Part shown: positions 9,939-18,772 of the stretch, one piece after another | How the letters are laid out: the number at the start of each line of letters is the position of its first letter | Position numbering within the stretch: the first letter of the stretch is position 1 | Origin: a virus | IMG/VR virus record: IMGVR_UViG_3300035681_000150 | Coordinates: 1-20,901 of that record | Reading direction: 5' to 3' (one strand) | DNA: 20,901 nucleotides | Notes under the pieces: generated by a model | What the model saw: only the letters and a program-made list of their open reading frames with translations | What the model was told of the DNA's origin: nothing | Database searches by the model: none | Position numbers and translations under genes: made by a program

Positions 9939-10579
9939 CACACAGCCTCCTGCGGCACAAACTGCAACAAGGTGAACGGGAGTGATACCGCCGTCTTCCT
10001 GTCTTCACGTGGGTAGATCAGTACTCGGTTCGCACCATCCAACATCATCGCGTTGACCACACCCTTCTCGATGCCTTCAAAGTCGTCGAACACAAAGATA
10101 GTCTGGTCATGAATGATCTTCGGGAAGTATTGGAAGTCCTCTTGCTGCAACCGACCGTCCAGATACAGCAAGTCCACGTTGACCTTCTTATCGGCCAAGT
10201 CCTTGAACATATCTGTCGATGATGTCTTCGGGTATTGATGGATATGAAACGGTAGGTTGAGCTTGATGTCGTTCGACACATCGCAGGTGTAGATATCTAC
10301 CTCTCCTTTGCAAGCTTCATACATCACGGTCGTCGATACACCGATAAACGTACCCACCTCGGCAATGACCTTTGGCTGAAAGAACTTCGCCAACTTGTAC
10401 AACTCAACCGCATCGTCATACGGGACTGACCCGGTATTGTAGTCTGCATCAGCACGCAGCTTCTGCTGATCCTCAACAATCTTCTCAATGACCTCGTACG
10501 GGTAGTCATCCACCCGCTCATCTACGATGCCCCAGAAGATGTTACTGAATCGTTGCCGTCCAATCTGTACCGGGTTCAT
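9938..10579 (-). CDS. Class I SAM-dependent methyltransferase
   Basis: A 213-aa protein with a Rossmann-type methyltransferase core: motif I VIAEVGTFIGVSTT (E74, G76, G80), acidic motif II YTCD (D100), then YLDGRLQQEDF (D141) and FVFDDFEGI (D165, D166). This order resembles the Methyltransf_24 group and related small-molecule or sugar-modifying enzymes, with acidic residues that could bind a metal. It sits upstream of the glycosyltransferases and is coupled to them by the micro-gene, so glycan methylation is a reasonable guess. The start ATG at 10579 overlaps the preceding stop (ATGA), with GAGGG upstream. Confidence 0.82.
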   Translation of the reverse strand: MNPVQIGRQRFSNIFWGIVDERVDDYPYEVIEKIVEDQQKLRADADYNTGSVPYDDAVELYKLAKFFQPKVIAEVGTFIGVSTTVMYEACKGEVDIYTCDVSNDIKLNLPFHIHQYPKTSSTDMFKDLADKKVNVDLLYLDGRLQQEDFQYFPKIIHDQTIFVFDDFEGIEKGVVNAMMLDGANRVLIYPREDRKTAVSLPFTLLQFVPQEAV

Positions 10580-11079
10580 ACACTTGCCCTCACTTCGTCC
10601 TTCTTACTCTCAACTGGTTGGAACTTGGTCTCGACCTTGGCTACAGCATCCCACACTTCGGACAACTCAATGAGAGTGTCGTACTTGCGGCGGCAGGCTC
10701 GTAGCTCAATGAGTGCGGTCTGAATCAGGTTCAACCGCAACGCCTCGTCGTTCATCACATCGTTGATGTGGCGGTAGCCGGGAAAACCCGACCCCGCCTT
10801 GCGATCCTCGATGAGAGAGACTAACGCTCGCACCGGAGGTTTCTGATCGTCAACTGGCTTGAGCACGAAGAGTCGAATGATGCGAGAGGCATAGTCGAGC
10901 CGTGCCTTCTCTGCCGCAGTCTTCTCATTCCACAATCCTTGCCGGTCGAAGTCTTCCCAGAGTGCCGAGTCCGGGTTCGCACGAGCGAAGTTGACGATGT
11001 GTTCCTGTTTGAGAAGCCCCCCGTGTGATACACGGAGGGTGTCCAGTTCTTCATTAATCCGATCACGCAGCGAGGACAT
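10576..11079 (-). CDS. Conserved phage protein, helical, unknown function
   Basis: A 167-aa, mostly alpha-helical protein (MSSLRDRINEELDTL, ALRLNLIQTALIELRACRRKY). The start ATG at 11079 has AGGAGAGG upstream and lies 17 nt inside the end of the RAMP-like gene. The centre (EDRKAGSGFPGYRHINDVMND) is a loop-like region with conserved-looking Gly, Pro and Asp. It resembles proteins I recall next to the same upstream gene in other phages, which suggests the two proteins act together. No enzyme motif seen. Confidence 0.78.
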   Translation of the reverse strand: MSSLRDRINEELDTLRVSHGGLLKQEHIVNFARANPDSALWEDFDRQGLWNEKTAAEKARLDYASRIIRLFVLKPVDDQKPPVRALVSLIEDRKAGSGFPGYRHINDVMNDEALRLNLIQTALIELRACRRKYDTLIELSEVWDAVAKVETKFQPVESKKDEVRASV

Positions 11080-11722
11080 CTGTCACCTCTCCTTGAATGT
11101 CAAACAAACCCCAACCCATGCCCGCAGAATTCTTCGAATCCGGTCGGCCTTCACCGATCCCGACTTGCTGACCTACGCGCATCATCAGGTTGATGATGTC
11201 ATTGTGCGAGAACATATCTGCGTCGTACCGCACACGCACCGTCATCTTCCATTGCTTCCACATCGGACGCACACGGATATCGACAGACCCGTTATCGTTT
11301 CTAGCATACGTCGTGTGACGGTTCGGCTCGCCATAGATGCGAACCAACGGAGTCTCATCATCAATGTCATACCCGTCCGCGAGTACGAACGCAGCGAGCT
11401 TTGCATGGGTCATCTTGTACCCGACCGTACGACAGGCCGAGACCATTGCGTTTCTGAATGCACCTGCTGGCACACCGATCCAACCCTCACGGGTCATGTG
11501 CATCGCGCCCATGTAGACCTCATCAAAATCCTTCGGGTCACGCTTCTTCTTACCCTTTGCTTGCGAACCTTCCTTCTGCGTCTGGATGATTTGGTTCCGC
11601 GCCTTCTGCGAGAACTTGTTCATCACCAACGGAGCCGCGCCCGCAATGTTGATCTCTGCAATCCGAAACTTCGGAGCCGGGATCTCTACCTTCTCTACCT
11701 TTGTACCTTCTTTCGTAGCCAC
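11063..11722 (-). CDS. Conserved phage protein with RAMP-like sequence features
   Basis: 219 aa from a GTG at 11722 with AGGAG 9-10 nt upstream. Seen: an N-terminal strand then APLVMNKFS (30-38), a Lys-rich loop (55-62), GVPAGAFRNAMVSACR (83-98) and a Gly-rich end GIGEGRPDSKNSAGMGWG (188-205). The order PLxMN, PAGxFRNAxxSA, then a Gly-rich SAGMGWG loop is similar to RAMP-superfamily (Cas7/Csm3-like) proteins, which bind RNA through a ferredoxin-like fold. That is my inference, not a demonstrated match. It lies directly downstream of the pentamer array and upstream of its probable partner at 10576-11079. Confidence 0.8.
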   Translation of the reverse strand: MATKEGTKVEKVEIPAPKFRIAEINIAGAAPLVMNKFSQKARNQIIQTQKEGSQAKGKKKRDPKDFDEVYMGAMHMTREGWIGVPAGAFRNAMVSACRTVGYKMTHAKLAAFVLADGYDIDDETPLVRIYGEPNRHTTYARNDNGSVDIRVRPMWKQWKMTVRVRYDADMFSHNDIINLMMRVGQQVGIGEGRPDSKNSAGMGWGLFDIQGEVTDVLAA

Positions 11723-11736
11723 TTTAGTTTCTCCTA

Positions 11737-11784
11737 GTTAATTGATTAAACACACTCAAACTATTCAACACACTCAACACTCAA
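11737..11784 (-). promoter_or_regulatory. Leader with inverted repeat and three ACACTCAA repeats
   Basis: On the plus strand ACACTCAA occurs at 11752-11759, 11770-11777 and 11777-11784, and GTTAATTGATTAAAC at 11737-11751 is an imperfect inverted repeat (5 of 7 pairs). The latter resembles the inverted repeats found after the promoters at 13.4 and 15.2 kb. No convincing -35/-10 pair is visible here. It may be a regulator-binding leader for the RAMP-like gene. Confidence 0.4.
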
Positions 11785-11805
11785 TAAGTCCGATCCATAC
11801 CGGGA

Positions 11806-12487
11806 CTTACCAAACCGTGCCACACCTAGCGTTGCCTGCGATGCCTCACCTCGCTTCGCCTCACCTTGCCTGACCGCGCCGTGCCTGCGATGCAGAACCA
11901 CACCTTGCCAAACCGAGCCATACCTGCGATGCCTTACCAGACCTTGCCCGATCTGGCCTCACCTAACCTCGCCTGCGATGCCTTACTAAACCTAACCGCG
12001 CCACACCGTACCAAGCCGAGCCTGCGATGCCTAACCAGACGCTGCGGGAACATACCGCGCCTAGCCAAACCTGCCTTGCCTCTCGCCGCCTGACCAAACG
12101 ACCCTGCGCCTCGCCTCGCCTGCGTTGCCTTACCAAACCTAACCTCACCCCGCCATACCCAGCCTAACCATGCCTGCGTTGCCTTACCAAACCCAACCTC
12201 GCCACACCTATCCATGCCTGCCTTGCCTCTCGCCGCAGAGCCAAACCAGTACGCACCTCGCCTCGCCATGCCTGCGATACCAAACCGTGCCCATCCACAC
12301 CTCGCCATGCCTGCGATGCCCTACCTTACCCAGCGTTGCCGGATCGCGCCGCGCCCGACCTTGCGAGACCGTGCCTCGCCATGCCTGCGATACCAGACCA
12401 GACCGTACCTTGCCCAACCTTCCCGAGCCGTGCCTGCCATGCCTAGTCGAGCGCAACTGCGCGATACCCGACCGAGCCTGACCTGCC
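11806..12487. repeat. Phase-locked pentanucleotide array (NNRCC)n with 4-nt register markers
   Basis: On the plus strand CC recurs every 5 bp for about 680 bp. The base before CC is nearly always a purine and the first two bases are free, so the sense (minus) strand reads GGYNN repeats. At intervals a 4-mer, TGCG or TGCC, replaces a pentamer, usually as CCTGCGATGCC. These 4-mers start at 11837, 11886, 11925, 11974, 12023, 12072, 12121, 12175, 12219, 12273, 12312, 12386, 12435 and 12484. Spacings are 49, 39, 49, 49, 49, 49, 49, 54, 44, 54, 39, 74, 49 and 49 minus none repeated beyond the 13 intervals listed by the positions: every interval equals 5n+4. A 19-bp block containing CTCTCGCCGC recurs 147 bp apart (12071 and 12218), three 49-bp units. 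It begins directly after the DUF3310 stop codon. Open frames inside it are by-products of a stop-poor repeat. Confidence 0.93.
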
Positions 12488-12488
12488 A

Positions 12489-12791
12489 CTACGCCCGTTT
12501 TCTCCGGGCAATCTCCCTCTTCAAATAAAACTCTGCTTTCTCCAAGTCCTGAACCGGATCGACACCGACCTTCTTGCCCGCTCGAACAACGTACTTCACA
12601 ACGTTGAACAGGTACGCATTCTCAGTCAGCCCCTTCGCCTCTGCGAAGTCGATGAAATCAATTCCACCCGCTTTGTAATGCGGCGGGTTGTTCACAAGAT
12701 CAGCTTCCCGATCTTTAATTTTGTCGAGCGCAGCGAGCGTAGCTTTCATCTCCTGCACCGAATCTAAAAGTCTCGACGGCTTTCTACTCAT
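12489..12791 (-). CDS. DUF3310 family protein
   Basis: A 100-aa protein with the DUF3310 core: VNNPPHYKAGGIDFIDFAEAKG near residues 37-58, then YLFNVVKYVVRAGKK and ending in FYLKREIARRK. The family is common in phages and of uncertain activity (sometimes labelled nucleotide kinase-like). The ATG at 12791 is chosen over a TTG at 12797. AGGAG lies about 10 nt before the ATG, and the start falls inside the VRR-NUC gene's end (8-nt overlap). The pentamer array begins immediately after its stop. Confidence 0.85.
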   Translation of the reverse strand: MSRKPSRLLDSVQEMKATLAALDKIKDREADLVNNPPHYKAGGIDFIDFAEAKGLTENAYLFNVVKYVVRAGKKVGVDPVQDLEKAEFYLKREIARRKRA

Positions 12792-13121: not shown

Positions 13122-13355
13122 TTAGTGCATATTCTTAATGCTGAATCGTCGGCCTTTCTCAATATCAATGACTAAATAATCTTTGGCGGCTTTCTCCGAG
13201 ATCACATCGAAGTACTTCCAGTACCAATCCAATATGTCCTGCATATCATTCGCCACACAAAGCAAGTCATCGTTCCTCTGGGCGACGATGAGATAACGAT
13301 AGCCCGCAGGTACGTCGTACTTCTTGATGAGGTTTTCTTTGGTGAGGTTAGTCAT
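13122..13355 (-). CDS. Small phage protein, unknown; first gene after a strong promoter
   Basis: A 77-aa protein opening MTNLTKENLIKKYDVPAGYRYL, with an aromatic middle (ILDWYWKYFDVI) and a basic end. The ATG at 13355 has GGAGAAA 5 nt upstream. Further in-frame sequence to 13391 runs into the operator and is rejected. It is the only gene between the consensus promoter at 13405-13433 and the terminator at 13085-13115, so it may be made as a single-gene transcript. No family recognised; a host-takeover role would fit its promoter but is speculation. Confidence 0.75.
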   Translation of the reverse strand: MTNLTKENLIKKYDVPAGYRYLIVAQRNDDLLCVANDMQDILDWYWKYFDVISEKAAKDYLVIDIEKGRRFSIKNMH

Positions 13356-13665: not shown

Positions 13666-13845
13666 TCAAAAAGGAAAGTATTCACGCGGTTGTTTCGGTT
13701 CTTCGAGCGGGAGTTCTAATTGCCGCGTGATCTGGCGAGGTCTGCACCACCACTCGCGTAGCTCGTACAACTCCAGATCGATGTCATACTCGTTGTCACC
13801 CTTGACCGGGATAACCCAGTCGTTCCGTAATTCAAATGTTTTCAC
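13666..13845 (-). CDS. Small phage protein with GTG start, unknown
   Basis: A 59-aa gene fills what would otherwise be a gap. GTG at 13845 with the leader GAGGTGCGAAC, opening MKTFELRNDWVIPVKGDNEY, then YELREWWCRPRQITRQLELP and a Pro-rich, aromatic end (EYFPF). Its TGA lies within the SD of the next gene. Frame, SD and spacing all match the neighbouring small genes. No family recognised. Confidence 0.7.
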   Translation of the reverse strand: MKTFELRNDWVIPVKGDNEYDIDLELYELREWWCRPRQITRQLELPLEEPKQPREYFPF

Positions 13846-16673: not shown

Positions 16674-17573
16674 TTAGGCGGCTACGGCTAGCGTGGCGCG
16701 AGTCTCGCCCGTTTCGCTTGCTTGCATGATGTAGTCGCAAGCCTTTTGAGCTTCGCTCGCGGCGCGAATGATCGCCTTGCTATCGCTTTTCAATACTTTC
16801 AGCCATGAGGCGAGGTACTGAGCGTGATCGGGGCGGGGGTCATTCGTTATGCCTAGCTGAGCACATAAAAACGCCGCGCCCATTTCGGCGGCTAGTTCTT
16901 CGACGGCATAAGCTTCATCGCCGAACTTTTTGAACTTTGTAAAGCCCCGCGAAAGGCGCGACTCGTGTCCAGTCCAGTGAGTCAACTCATGTAGTGCTGT
17001 GCTGTAGTAGGCTTCCGTTGGCGAACTCGTCTCGGTTCCGATGAATGCGGCGCGCTCCGGTAAATAAATCTCGTCAGTCGAATGACGATAAAAGGCGCGG
17101 CTACCGGCATGGGTGACCTTCGCCCCCGTCGCTGTAATGACTTCGTCCGCCCGTGCTATCCGTTGCGTCAAGTCTTCGCGGGGTGCGGATGCTTCGCCCG
17201 TCTCGCCGTCTACCTGTTCGGCGTTGAAAAGATAAAAGGCGCGAGCGAACGGCGTCGCCTTAGTTTTCCCGGTAGCGTCTTCGTGCTCCGTGATGGTGTA
17301 GAAAATCCCGGCGGTAGCCTTTTCGCCCTTGCGGACTTGCGCCCCATTCGCCGCCCATTGTTTATATGTCGCCCATCGATTCGAAGCGTAGCCGTGTTGC
17401 ATACCGGCCACCCATAACGTGAGGATGTTCGAGCCGCGGTACTTCGCCCCGGTAATAGCGTTGCATGGGATATCGTTCGCCGTGCTCGCTCGATGCCACG
17501 GCATTCGGAACTCTCCCGCGCCTTGCTCGATTGCGTTGATGATGTTGGCCGTCACTGTTTCGTAGATGTTCAT
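16674..17573 (-). CDS. ardC: ArdC-like anti-restriction protein with zinc metallopeptidase motif
   Basis: A 299-aa protein with the two-domain ArdC layout. About 1-120: the ssDNA-binding N-terminal domain (MNIYETVTANIINAIEQG, MPWHR, YRGSNILTLW, WATYKQWAANGAQVRKGEK). About 140-299: the metallopeptidase domain with HELTHWTGH (HExxH, His195, Glu196, His199) and EELAAEMGAAFLC (226-238), the usual third zinc ligand region. Known members protect incoming DNA from restriction. The ATG at 17573 has GGA about 13 nt away in the shared GGAAAAAGCAT leader; upstream in-frame sequence overlaps the preceding gene and is rejected. Its place near the start of the leftward early operon fits expression soon after DNA entry. 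Confidence 0.9.
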   Translation of the reverse strand: MNIYETVTANIINAIEQGAGEFRMPWHRASTANDIPCNAITGAKYRGSNILTLWVAGMQHGYASNRWATYKQWAANGAQVRKGEKATAGIFYTITEHEDATGKTKATPFARAFYLFNAEQVDGETGEASAPREDLTQRIARADEVITATGAKVTHAGSRAFYRHSTDEIYLPERAAFIGTETSSPTEAYYSTALHELTHWTGHESRLSRGFTKFKKFGDEAYAVEELAAEMGAAFLCAQLGITNDPRPDHAQYLASWLKVLKSDSKAIIRAASEAQKACDYIMQASETGETRATLAVAA

Positions 17574-17604
17574 GGTTATGCTTTTTCCGTGTGGTGTGGA
17601 TTGG

Positions 17605-17697
17605 TTAGGCAATGGCCGCGAAAATGAAAAACAGCGGCGGGGCGGTGATCAGGAAAAGCCAGAAAAAAATCTCGGGGGCGTGGTTTCGCTTGCTCAT
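17605..17697 (-). CDS. Single-span membrane micro-protein, 30 aa
   Basis: ATG at 17697 with GAGGG 9 nt upstream. Residues 1-9 are polar and basic (MSKRNHAPE), and the rest is one continuous hydrophobic span (IFFWLFLITAPPLFFIFAAI). It starts 3 nt after the stop of the 57-aa membrane gene. Size and composition suit a small inner-membrane protein such as a superinfection or host-membrane modifier. A holin is less likely in an early operon. Confidence 0.62.
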   Translation of the reverse strand: MSKRNHAPEIFFWLFLITAPPLFFIFAAIA

Positions 17698-17700
17698 GGT

Positions 17701-17874
17701 TTAGACCCTCTTTAAAAGACAATGCACGGCGGCGTAGACGTAGAGACAACCCGCCCCGGTTAGGAGCATTCCACCCGCGAGGGTTTCGAGGTTGGCCGCG
17801 TGGTGTAGGTTCGCGAATCCGATATAGGTGAAAAGAGCGCCGCCCGATAGGTTGGCAAGGTGTACTAGTTTCAT
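17701..17874 (-). CDS. Small membrane protein, 57 aa
   Basis: The ATG at 17874 (GGAG about 11 nt upstream) is chosen over the longer in-frame ORF, whose N-terminus lies over the next gene. Two hydrophobic stretches, GGALFTYIGFANL and LAGGMLLTGAGCLYVYAAVH, suggest two membrane spans. It lies between the 63-aa gene and the 30-aa membrane gene; together they form a short membrane-protein pair. No family recognised. Confidence 0.65.
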   Translation of the reverse strand: MKLVHLANLSGGALFTYIGFANLHHAANLETLAGGMLLTGAGCLYVYAAVHCLLKRV

Positions 17875-17890
17875 GGTGAGGTTGCTCCGG

Positions 17891-18082
17891 TTAGGCTTGA
17901 ACATCTGAGGCGATGTAGTGCTCGGACAATTCCGGCAAGGTTTTATCGAATCGAATCCGGGCGGCGTCGATCGCTTCCGGTGCGGTTGCAGCTTCAACCT
18001 TGAAGCCGAAAATATCAGGCTTCCCGAGATTCCCGGCGGGTGCGGTTGAGCGCGGCGAAAAGGTGACTAGATACTTTTTCAT
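17891..18082 (-). CDS. First gene of the leftward operon, unknown
   Basis: A 63-aa protein opening MKKYLVTFSPRSTAPAGNLG, then FGFKVEAATAPEAIDAAR, the same strand-then-helix plan as the DpnD/PcfM-like protein at 14998-15195. ATG at 18082 with CCGGAG 5 nt upstream. It is the promoter-proximal gene of the operon containing ArdC. Specific function unknown. Confidence 0.72.
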   Translation of the reverse strand: MKKYLVTFSPRSTAPAGNLGKPDIFGFKVEAATAPEAIDAARIRFDKTLPELSEHYIASDVQA

Positions 18083-18115
18083 TTTTGCTCCGGTGTGGTT
18101 TCGTTCGACGGGTCT

Positions 18116-18186
18116 ATTAAATAACTTTTCTTTACTTATTGGAAGCCCCCCGGCGAAATTAATTGATGCCCCTCAATGCTATGCAA
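18116..18186 (-). promoter_or_regulatory. Possible leftward early promoter region
   Basis: Two weak candidates are visible on the minus strand: TTGCAT (18181-18186), 17 bp, ATTAAT (18158-18163); and TTCCAA (18139-18144), 17 bp, TTTAAT (18116-18121). An inverted repeat ATTGA/TCAAT (18162-18177) lies inside the first. A promoter is required near here for the leftward operon, but neither match is good, so a phage-specific or activator-dependent promoter is possible. Confidence 0.35.
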
Positions 18187-18201
18187 TTTAGGCAGCTATC
18201 T

Positions 18202-18256
18202 GGTGCGGCGAGGTAAGGCGTGGCCGGGTGAGGTTTTGCGGGGTTGGGTGTGGGTA
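18202..18256. repeat. Second pentamer array, GGYNN orientation on the plus strand
   Basis: Eleven consecutive 5-bp units in perfect phase: GGTGC GGCGA GGTAA GGCGT, GGCCG GGTGA GGTTT, one exception TGCGG, then GGTTG GGTGT GGGTA. Ten of eleven begin with GG, mostly followed by a pyrimidine. It is the same rule as the large array at 11.8-12.5 kb but with the G-rich strand on the opposite DNA strand. Confidence 0.75.
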
Positions 18257-18260
18257 ACCT

Positions 18261-18269
18261 TGTGGATAT
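18261..18269 (-). promoter_or_regulatory. Near-consensus DnaA box
   Basis: Plus strand TGTGGATAT, i.e. ATATCCACA on the minus strand, is one mismatch from the consensus TTATCCACA. It lies between the small pentamer array and the first TTGTTCCAG repeat. One 9-mer alone could be chance; the setting raises its value. Confidence 0.4.
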
Positions 18270-18284
18270 CTGACTGGCGGGGTT

Positions 18285-18772
18285 TTGTTCCAGAGCCGGG
18301 TCTAGTTTTGTTCCAGTTGTTCCAGAGGGGCGAAAATGCTGGAACAGAAAAAGTCTAATAAAATCAACGGGTTAGGCTTAGGCTTGTTCCAGAGTTTGTA
18401 CCGGGATTTTTGTACTATGGAACGGCGAAACGGCGAGGGGGGCGACGTAACTTGTTGTTTTTATTAGAATTGATTGATAATAAGTAAAGAGAAAAAAGAG
18501 AGAAAAAAGGGATTTTTGAAAAACGAACGGGTTTCAAATTATTTTCGAGCTTTTTAACGCGCCGCGCTCCCTTGCTTCGCTCTCCCGATTTTTGCGCGAT
18601 TCTGCCGGGCTACCCCTCGTTTTTGCTGGAACACTGGAACAAGCCTAAAAAAACGGCGTTTTTCCTTTTAAAATCAAACACTTGCGCTGTTCCAATTTCT
18701 TTGATCATCTGGAACAAGCCCGGAACAAGCCTAAAAAAGCCAATATAATCAATGCCCCTCGCCTTGTTCCAC
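18285..18772. repeat. TTGTTCCAG nonamer cluster (putative origin iterons or packaging site)
   Basis: Eleven copies or near-copies. Forward: 18285, 18308, 18317, 18384, 18687 (CTGTTCCAA), 18764 (TTGTTCCAC). Reverse: 18339, 18626, 18634, 18709, 18720 (CCGGAACAA). Two pairs are direct tandem repeats (18308/18317 and 18626/18634). A longer form TTAGGCTTGTTCC at 18378 is exactly inverted at 18636 and 18722. Forward copies dominate the left side and reverse copies the right side of an AT-rich centre, giving overall dyad symmetry. There is no gene here. Confidence 0.85.
18449..18560. other. AT-rich stretch with homopurine run (candidate unwinding element)
   Basis: Notably A/T-rich compared with the C/G-rich flanks, including a 27-nt all-purine run at 18486-18512 and several TTTTT/AAAAA tracts. 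It is centred between the left and right groups of TTGTTCCAG repeats, which is the arrangement expected of a duplex-opening region, though it could simply be a flexible spacer. Confidence 0.5.

What the first reader, a model, noticed from the sequence alone, without database searches (positions are those of the whole stretch)
18202..18256. Second pentamer array in the opposite orientation, beside the putative origin
Ten of eleven consecutive 5-mers start with GG and stay in perfect phase. The same rule as the 12-kb array, at a distant non-coding site and on the other strand, suggests a shared trans-acting factor or structural function such as strand marking in replication or packaging. If it acts as RNA, the two arrays would be of opposite sense relative to nearby transcription.
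Basis: seen in the sequence. Interest (0 to 1): 0.7.

Follow-up and report, generated by a model that had tools for sequence, protein, structure and literature searches.

The report
Distal guide-RNA-like pentamer array, VIPR phage
The odd GG-every-five-bases stretch is most likely a lone guide RNA of VIPR, a recently described CRISPR-like weapon that phages use against rivals, lying far from the rest of the system and on the opposite DNA strand.

Summary
The run is real: 10 of 11 in-phase pentamers at 18202-18256 (+) start with GG, and 9 of the 10 in 18202-18251 are GGY. None of 2000 local shuffles and none of 93 control loci, 0.83 Mb, match it. The 12-kb array (11787-12489) obeys the same GGYNN rule on the minus strand, in sense with its operon. 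A pattern scan for GGYNN arrays fetched 119 phage-contig stretches. 96 of them lie on contigs encoding one protein family, the family of window gene 11063-11722(-). That family matches the solved SUSP1 Vipr (profile E=3.5e-47) and folds like Csm3/Cas7. The window therefore carries a VIPR system (PMC13142463): Vipr plus vrRNAs whose NN dinucleotides read target DNA. The 18-kb run is probably a solitary distal vrRNA. A relative (L164) keeps GG but changes every NN in its first four units. Both-strand arrays are rare: 2 of 63 array-bearing records, one being the window's twin; the other (G024) has a clear distal, opposite-strand run. Against it: the run lacks the local array's separator, seven relatives lack the run, and no convincing target was found. 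The system is known; the distal placement is the unusual part.

The parts
18202..18256 (+). Solitary GGYNN run of 10-11 pentamers; putative distal vrRNA variable region (NN: GC GA AA GT CG GA TT GG TG GT TA)
18247..18276 (+). Stretch at the 3' end of the run conserved in L164 (GGTGTGGGTAA..TTGTGGATAT.TG); possible vrRNA tail (inferred)
   Evidence: pattern found only in L206 (twin) and L164; no fold stronger than shuffles
11787..12489 (-). Main GGYNN multi-guide array, with 9 GGYANCGCA separators that shift the phase by one base; staggered VIPR array (inferred)
   Evidence: same separators in relatives L237, L238, L239
11063..11722 (-). vipr gene: 219-aa RAMP (Cas7/Csm3-like) protein
   Evidence: profile match to PDB 36pp_D SUSP1 Vipr E=3.5e-47; AF2 pLDDT 90.8; Foldseek Csm3/Cas7
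10576..11079 (-). Putative vap (VIPR accessory) gene, overlapping vipr; homologues near other arrays; phrog_15946
18285..18771 (.). Seven TTGTTCCA iteron-like sites beside the run, both orientations; putative origin or operator, not part of the array

Best explanation
The window is part of a phage that carries a VIPR system: a Vipr RAMP protein (11063-11722 -), a probable accessory protein (10576-11079 -) and a multi-guide array (11787-12489 -). The 18202-18256 run is most likely a further, solitary vrRNA of the same kind, placed 6.5 kb away on the other strand in the intergenic region before the terminase genes. Proposed working, by analogy with the published SUSP1 system: rightward transcription gives an RNA with GGY every 5 nt; Vipr subunits line up on the repeats and keep GGY unpaired; the NN pairs read double-stranded DNA as NNxNNx..., and the bound complex silences the target in a competing element. 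Shown here: the array, the Vipr homology and fold, the array-Vipr linkage, the strand rule, and GG kept while NN changes between two genomes. Inferred: transcription, loading, target and function of the 18-kb RNA.
For: Statistics. Linkage: 88 of 119 loci fetched only by the array pattern encode the family in the held flank, against 2 of 80 loci fetched by TerL, and those two also hold arrays; 8 more of the 31 have it elsewhere on the contig. Vipr identity; paper main text. Strand rule. Selection pattern: W against L164, units 1-4, mismatches by position 0,0,2,4,4 of 4 each; chance of none at the 8 GG positions 3.6e-4. Two of two array differences from twin L121 are Y-to-Y at unit position 3. 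Independent precedent: G024 has vipr and arrays at 31.0-32.5 kb (+) and one 12-unit run at 13261-13320 (-), whose 3' end (GGTTTGGAGCAATAC) resembles that of a local array (GGTTTGGAGGAATAT).
Against: The run lacks the GGYANCGCA separator of the resident array. No sigma-70-like promoter was found in 17990-18520, and RNA folding is no better than shuffles. Seven relatives lack the run, including L238, whose Vipr is 88% identical. All arrays in five named phages with vipr homologues lie close to vipr and on its strand. No target: the 10-unit pattern has 0 exact hits in viral contigs and none in the window with up to 3 mismatches; in all loci held the best 10-unit match is no better with a 1-nt skip than with other skips. 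The 3' half in L164 is identical at NN in units 5-8, so only the first half shows the hypervariable pattern.
Confidence: 0.62

Rival explanations
1. Orphan relic: a vrRNA left behind by an earlier, different VIPR cassette and no longer loaded by the present Vipr.
For: Cassettes do swap. L123 is 85-95% identical to the window in the aligned stretches around the cassette but has another Vipr (20% identical) with differently ended arrays in the same region. The 18-kb run lacks the resident separator and has one TGC and one GGG unit.
Against: GG is kept in phase in both W and L164 while NN changes, and no run differences separate W from L121; a relic should lose GG as fast as NN.
Confidence: 0.2
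2. DNA-level element of the putative origin/regulatory region (protein-binding or G-rich melting region beside the TTGTTCCA iterons), similar to vrRNA only by rule.
For: It lies about 30-80 bp before an iteron cluster, and the flanking TTGTGGATAT resembles a DnaA box (recalled, not tested).
Against: Iteron-bearing relatives lack the run; such runs are otherwise tied to vipr and absent from 93 control loci.
Confidence: 0.09
3. A decoy: a solitary vrRNA mimic that occupies the Vipr of a competing phage, as solitary CRISPR repeats do for Cas proteins (the CRISPR parallel is recalled).
For: Solitary, distal, other strand, different 3' flank from the resident array.
Against: No direct evidence; the G024 distal run shares its local arrays' 3' end, which favours use by the resident system there.
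Confidence: 0.06
4. Chance G-rich sequence.
For: The surrounding 1000 bases (17501-18500) have positive GC skew.
Against: 0 of 2000 local shuffles; 0 of 93 control loci; a homologous run in L164.
Confidence: 0.03

Closest known systems
VIPR systems (Vipr + vap + vrRNA), PMC13142463, bioRxiv 10.64898/2026.04.26.720920 v2 (whole main text read; supplement not read)
   Same: Phage-encoded RAMP protein of the Vipr family, adjacent small gene, noncoding arrays of GGY/NN pentamers of the published length; the paper also mentions staggered arrays and systems with one vrRNA.
   Different: One array lies 6.5 kb from vipr on the opposite strand, with a 3' flank unlike that of the main array; the main text describes vrRNAs flanking the vipr locus. 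Transcription, loading and target are not shown here.
Class 1 CRISPR RAMPs (Csm3/Cas7)
   Same: Same fold as the window protein (Foldseek E 4.5e-6, probability 1.0).
   Different: Sequence identity of about 10%; no constant repeats with unique spacers; one small protein instead of a multi-subunit cas operon.
SUSP1 Vipr, PDB 36pp chain D
   Same: Profile match over 193 positions, E=3.5e-47.
   Different: Single-sequence similarity is weak (E=0.15).

Membership tests
VIPR (whole window locus) | Vipr: RAMP-fold protein of the Vipr family | tested here: met
VIPR (whole window locus) | Noncoding array(s) of alternating GGY/NN pentamers flanking vipr | tested here: met
   11787-12489 (-), immediately upstream of vipr
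VIPR (whole window locus) | Accessory (vap) gene beside vipr | tested here: inconclusive
   10576-11079 overlaps vipr and has homologues in other array loci, but it was not matched to a named vap1-6
vrRNA (the 18-kb run) | 9-16 GGYNN repeats | tested here: met
   10 of 11 GG units, 9 of 10 GGY
vrRNA (the 18-kb run) | GGY conserved and NN hypervariable between relatives | tested here: inconclusive
   units 1-4 of W against L164 fit (p=3.6e-4), but units 5-8 are identical at NN and only two genomes could be compared
vrRNA (the 18-kb run) | Lies in the VIPR locus next to vipr | tested here: not met
   6.48 kb from vipr, other strand (L236)
vrRNA (the 18-kb run) | Conserved 3' tail shared with the system's other vrRNAs | tested here: not met
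   no GGYANCGCA; its own 3' flank is shared with L164 only
vrRNA (the 18-kb run) | Target with 1-nt skip in a competing element | tested here: inconclusive
vrRNA (the 18-kb run) | Expressed and bound by Vipr | not testable with these tools
   needs RNA sequencing and pull-down
CRISPR array | Near-identical repeats with unique spacers | tested here: not met
   TRF finds no such array; the only longer-period rows are 39-nt, 79-81% matches, in the 12-kb array
Iteron array of an origin | Several near-identical binding sites | tested here: not met
   units of the run vary at NN; the separate TTGTTCCA sites nearby fit this better

The most novel reading that the evidence does not exclude
VIPR phages can keep a single vrRNA away from vipr, on the opposite strand and under a different operon (here before the terminase genes; in G024 18 kb from vipr). 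That would be a separately timed or separately inherited guide, possibly an orphan that borrows or blocks another element's Vipr.
Probability: 0.3. Interest if true: 0.7.

Novelty: new member of a known kind. Interest (0 to 1): 0.5.

Why it matters
It places an unexplained repeat in a just-described RNA-guided system with a code unlike CRISPR's. It gives an independent, annotation-free confirmation that GGYNN arrays and Vipr travel together in environmental phages. It also raises a testable point about solitary distal guides: separate timing, trans use, or decoys. Close relatives with swapped vipr cassettes suggest fast turnover in phage-phage conflict.

Tried and rejected
Origin, packaging or strand-marking role: no supporting evidence; relatives with the same iterons lack the run.

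Protein-coding reading: rejected (mechanical 60-aa ORF only; one-unit, 5-nt indel in L164).

Rfam, tRNA, promoter and RNA folding: nothing informative.

Target search for the 18-kb guide. Ten units exact: 0 in viral contigs. Units 2-9: 4 hits, two of them in homologous small genes (Ref/HNH-like by recalled name), codon-aligned, 17 of 20 over ten units. Units 2-10 in genome contigs: 10 hits, close to my estimate of 7-8 by chance under uniform base composition. One (L222, Desulfobulbus) matches all ten units in a receiver-domain-like ORF; 5 of 10 lie in ORFs with the NN at codon positions 1-2. I do not claim a target. A 12-kb guide gave 2 hits out of codon register. A G024 distal guide gave 6 hits with 18-21 of 24 matching. 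Testing the skip rule on all arrays against 1.76 Mb of held loci was underpowered: distinct guide windows matched were 1, 7, 2, 4 and 2 for skips 0 to 4, several of them simple repeats.

Finding the host by Vipr in genome contigs: no relatives. First literature searches on pentamer repeats in phages found nothing relevant (listings only).

The crude ORF caller misassigned some flanking genes (it chose an antisense ORF over the window's vipr), so its upstream same:opposite count of 109:35 is only indicative. One search merged array-derived peptides; one search used stricter links. My notebook entry giving 26% identity for the L123 Vipr is wrong; one search gives 20%.

Full report
OBSERVATION. 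From 18202 on the plus strand the units are GGTGC GGCGA GGTAA GGCGT GGCCG GGTGA GGTTT TGCGG GGTTG GGTGT GGGTA; 10 of 11 start with GG. Scored as a phased run it reaches 8.5 (GG) or 7.5 (GGY); the best of 2000 dinucleotide shuffles of the surroundings reaches 6.0 and 5.0, and none of 300 whole-window shuffles reaches the observed value. In 93 loci (826,991 bases) not selected for arrays there is no GGY run scoring 5 or more; L121, L123 and L164 were left out of that count because they hold such runs. The 12-kb array is the same rule on the minus strand, in blocks divided by nine GGYANCGCA separators.

WHAT KIND OF THING. Many hold 100-700 bases of such blocks. Among genes near the arrays one family stood out. 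A profile started from the window's gene 11063-11722(-) and that cluster finds it in 88 of the 119 loci, against 2 of 80 loci fetched by TerL, and those two are TerL loci that hold arrays. Of the 31 remaining, 8 have it elsewhere on their contig, two of these as partial matches at a contig end, giving 96 of 119. The other 23 include simple-repeat false positives (L033, L048, L114, judged).

THE PROTEIN. The single-sequence PDB search gave only a weak hit to 'SUSP1 Vipr protein' 36pp_D (E=0.15). The profile of 72 members hits the same chain at E=3.5e-47 and no other chain up to E=1. The AlphaFold2 model has mean pLDDT 90.8, and its best solved matches are Csm3/Cas7 subunits (E 4.5e-6, probability 1.0). 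That led to PMC13142463, whose main text I read in full: VIPR systems, a phage RAMP plus vrRNAs of 9-16 GGY/NN repeats whose NN read double-stranded DNA with a one-base skip, used against competing elements. A second literature search found no other paper on it. The small gene 10576-11079(-) overlaps vipr; homologues occur in 12 further loci besides the window and its twin L121. It is a likely vap, not matched to a named type.

RNA, NOT DNA, LEVEL. In 66 vipr-associated records (mostly contigs of 17 kb or more; contigs already known to lack vipr were not given), seven-unit GGY arrays occur in 63. They lie on one strand only in 61, and in 59 of these that is the strand of vipr (vipr places; exceptions G041 and G058). 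The reversed-pattern control gave 1 match and 7. Arrays thus follow transcription. The pooled NN spectrum of 3820 units resembles dinucleotides at sense codon positions 1-2 (Pearson 0.60) more than any other register (-0.28 to 0.27) or background (0.10), in line with the paper's wobble-skip claim, though only 16 dinucleotides are compared.

THE 18-KB RUN. It lies 6.48 kb from vipr on the other strand (L236), in a noncoding stretch before TerS/TerL. The near-identical contig L121/L206 (99.57%, 47 differences) has both arrays. The only two differences from it inside the 12-kb array are pyrimidine-to-pyrimidine at unit position 3, and the run has none. L164, a 6.9-kb fragment, has a run at the same place. 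Over the first four units GG is identical, Y is always a pyrimidine and all eight NN positions differ (p=3.6e-4); units 5-8 share NN; one whole pentamer is inserted or deleted; the 3' flank is conserved. L123, L183, L154, L200, L192 and L182 lack it, as does L238. A tail pattern finds it only in L206 and L164.

PRECEDENT. Only two of the 63 records have arrays on both strands: the window's twin and G024. G024 carries vipr and local arrays at 31.0-32.5 kb (+) and one perfect 12-unit run at 13261-13320 (-), 17.7 kb from vipr, whose 3' end resembles that of its local arrays. Distal opposite-strand guides therefore seem to exist but are rare. In five named phages with vipr homologues (Cy-LDV1, Pipp, Gorge in part, Trine, LESphi2) all arrays are near vipr and on its strand.

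CASSETTE TURNOVER. L123 is 85-95% identical to the window in the aligned stretches around the cassette but carries a Vipr only 20% identical, with arrays on the other side of vipr and a different array end. L237-L239, with 88-90% identical Vipr, keep the separators but differ from the window in most guide blocks.

AGAINST MY READING. The run lacks the resident separator, a recognisable promoter or a notable fold, and no target was established. The best lead, two homologous small phage genes matching 17 of 20 positions in codon register, is not shown to be beyond chance. I put 0.62 on a genuine vrRNA and 0.2 on a relic.

VERDICT. The array belongs to a known kind of system described in 2026. 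The window is a new member; the distal opposite-strand guide is the part worth testing.

Noticed in passing
window 18285-18771: All seven TTGTTCCA sites of the window lie here in both orientations, near an AT-rich stretch (71% AT at 18441-18540); in relatives L183, L200, L192, L182 and L238 the sites read TTGTGTCA instead, as if the site and its binding protein changed together.
   Followed up: partly
L123 1919-3010 against window 11063-12489: Closely related phages carry unrelated-looking VIPR cassettes (Vipr 20% identical) in the same genome region, with the array on the other side of vipr.
   Followed up: partly
L233 13261-13320 (contig G024): A 12-unit distal opposite-strand array, 17.7 kb from vipr.
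   Followed up: partly
window 16674-17612 (-): ArdC-like antirestriction protein with zincin-like metallopeptidase domain.
   Followed up: no
window 13672-13720: A 49-base stretch holds 24 of the 47 differences between the window and its twin L121; possible small replacement or assembly error.
   Followed up: no
L009, L022, L030 and other array contigs: Several contigs over 30 kb have GGYNN runs but no recognisable vipr: divergent Vipr types, missing ends, or orphan arrays.
   Followed up: no
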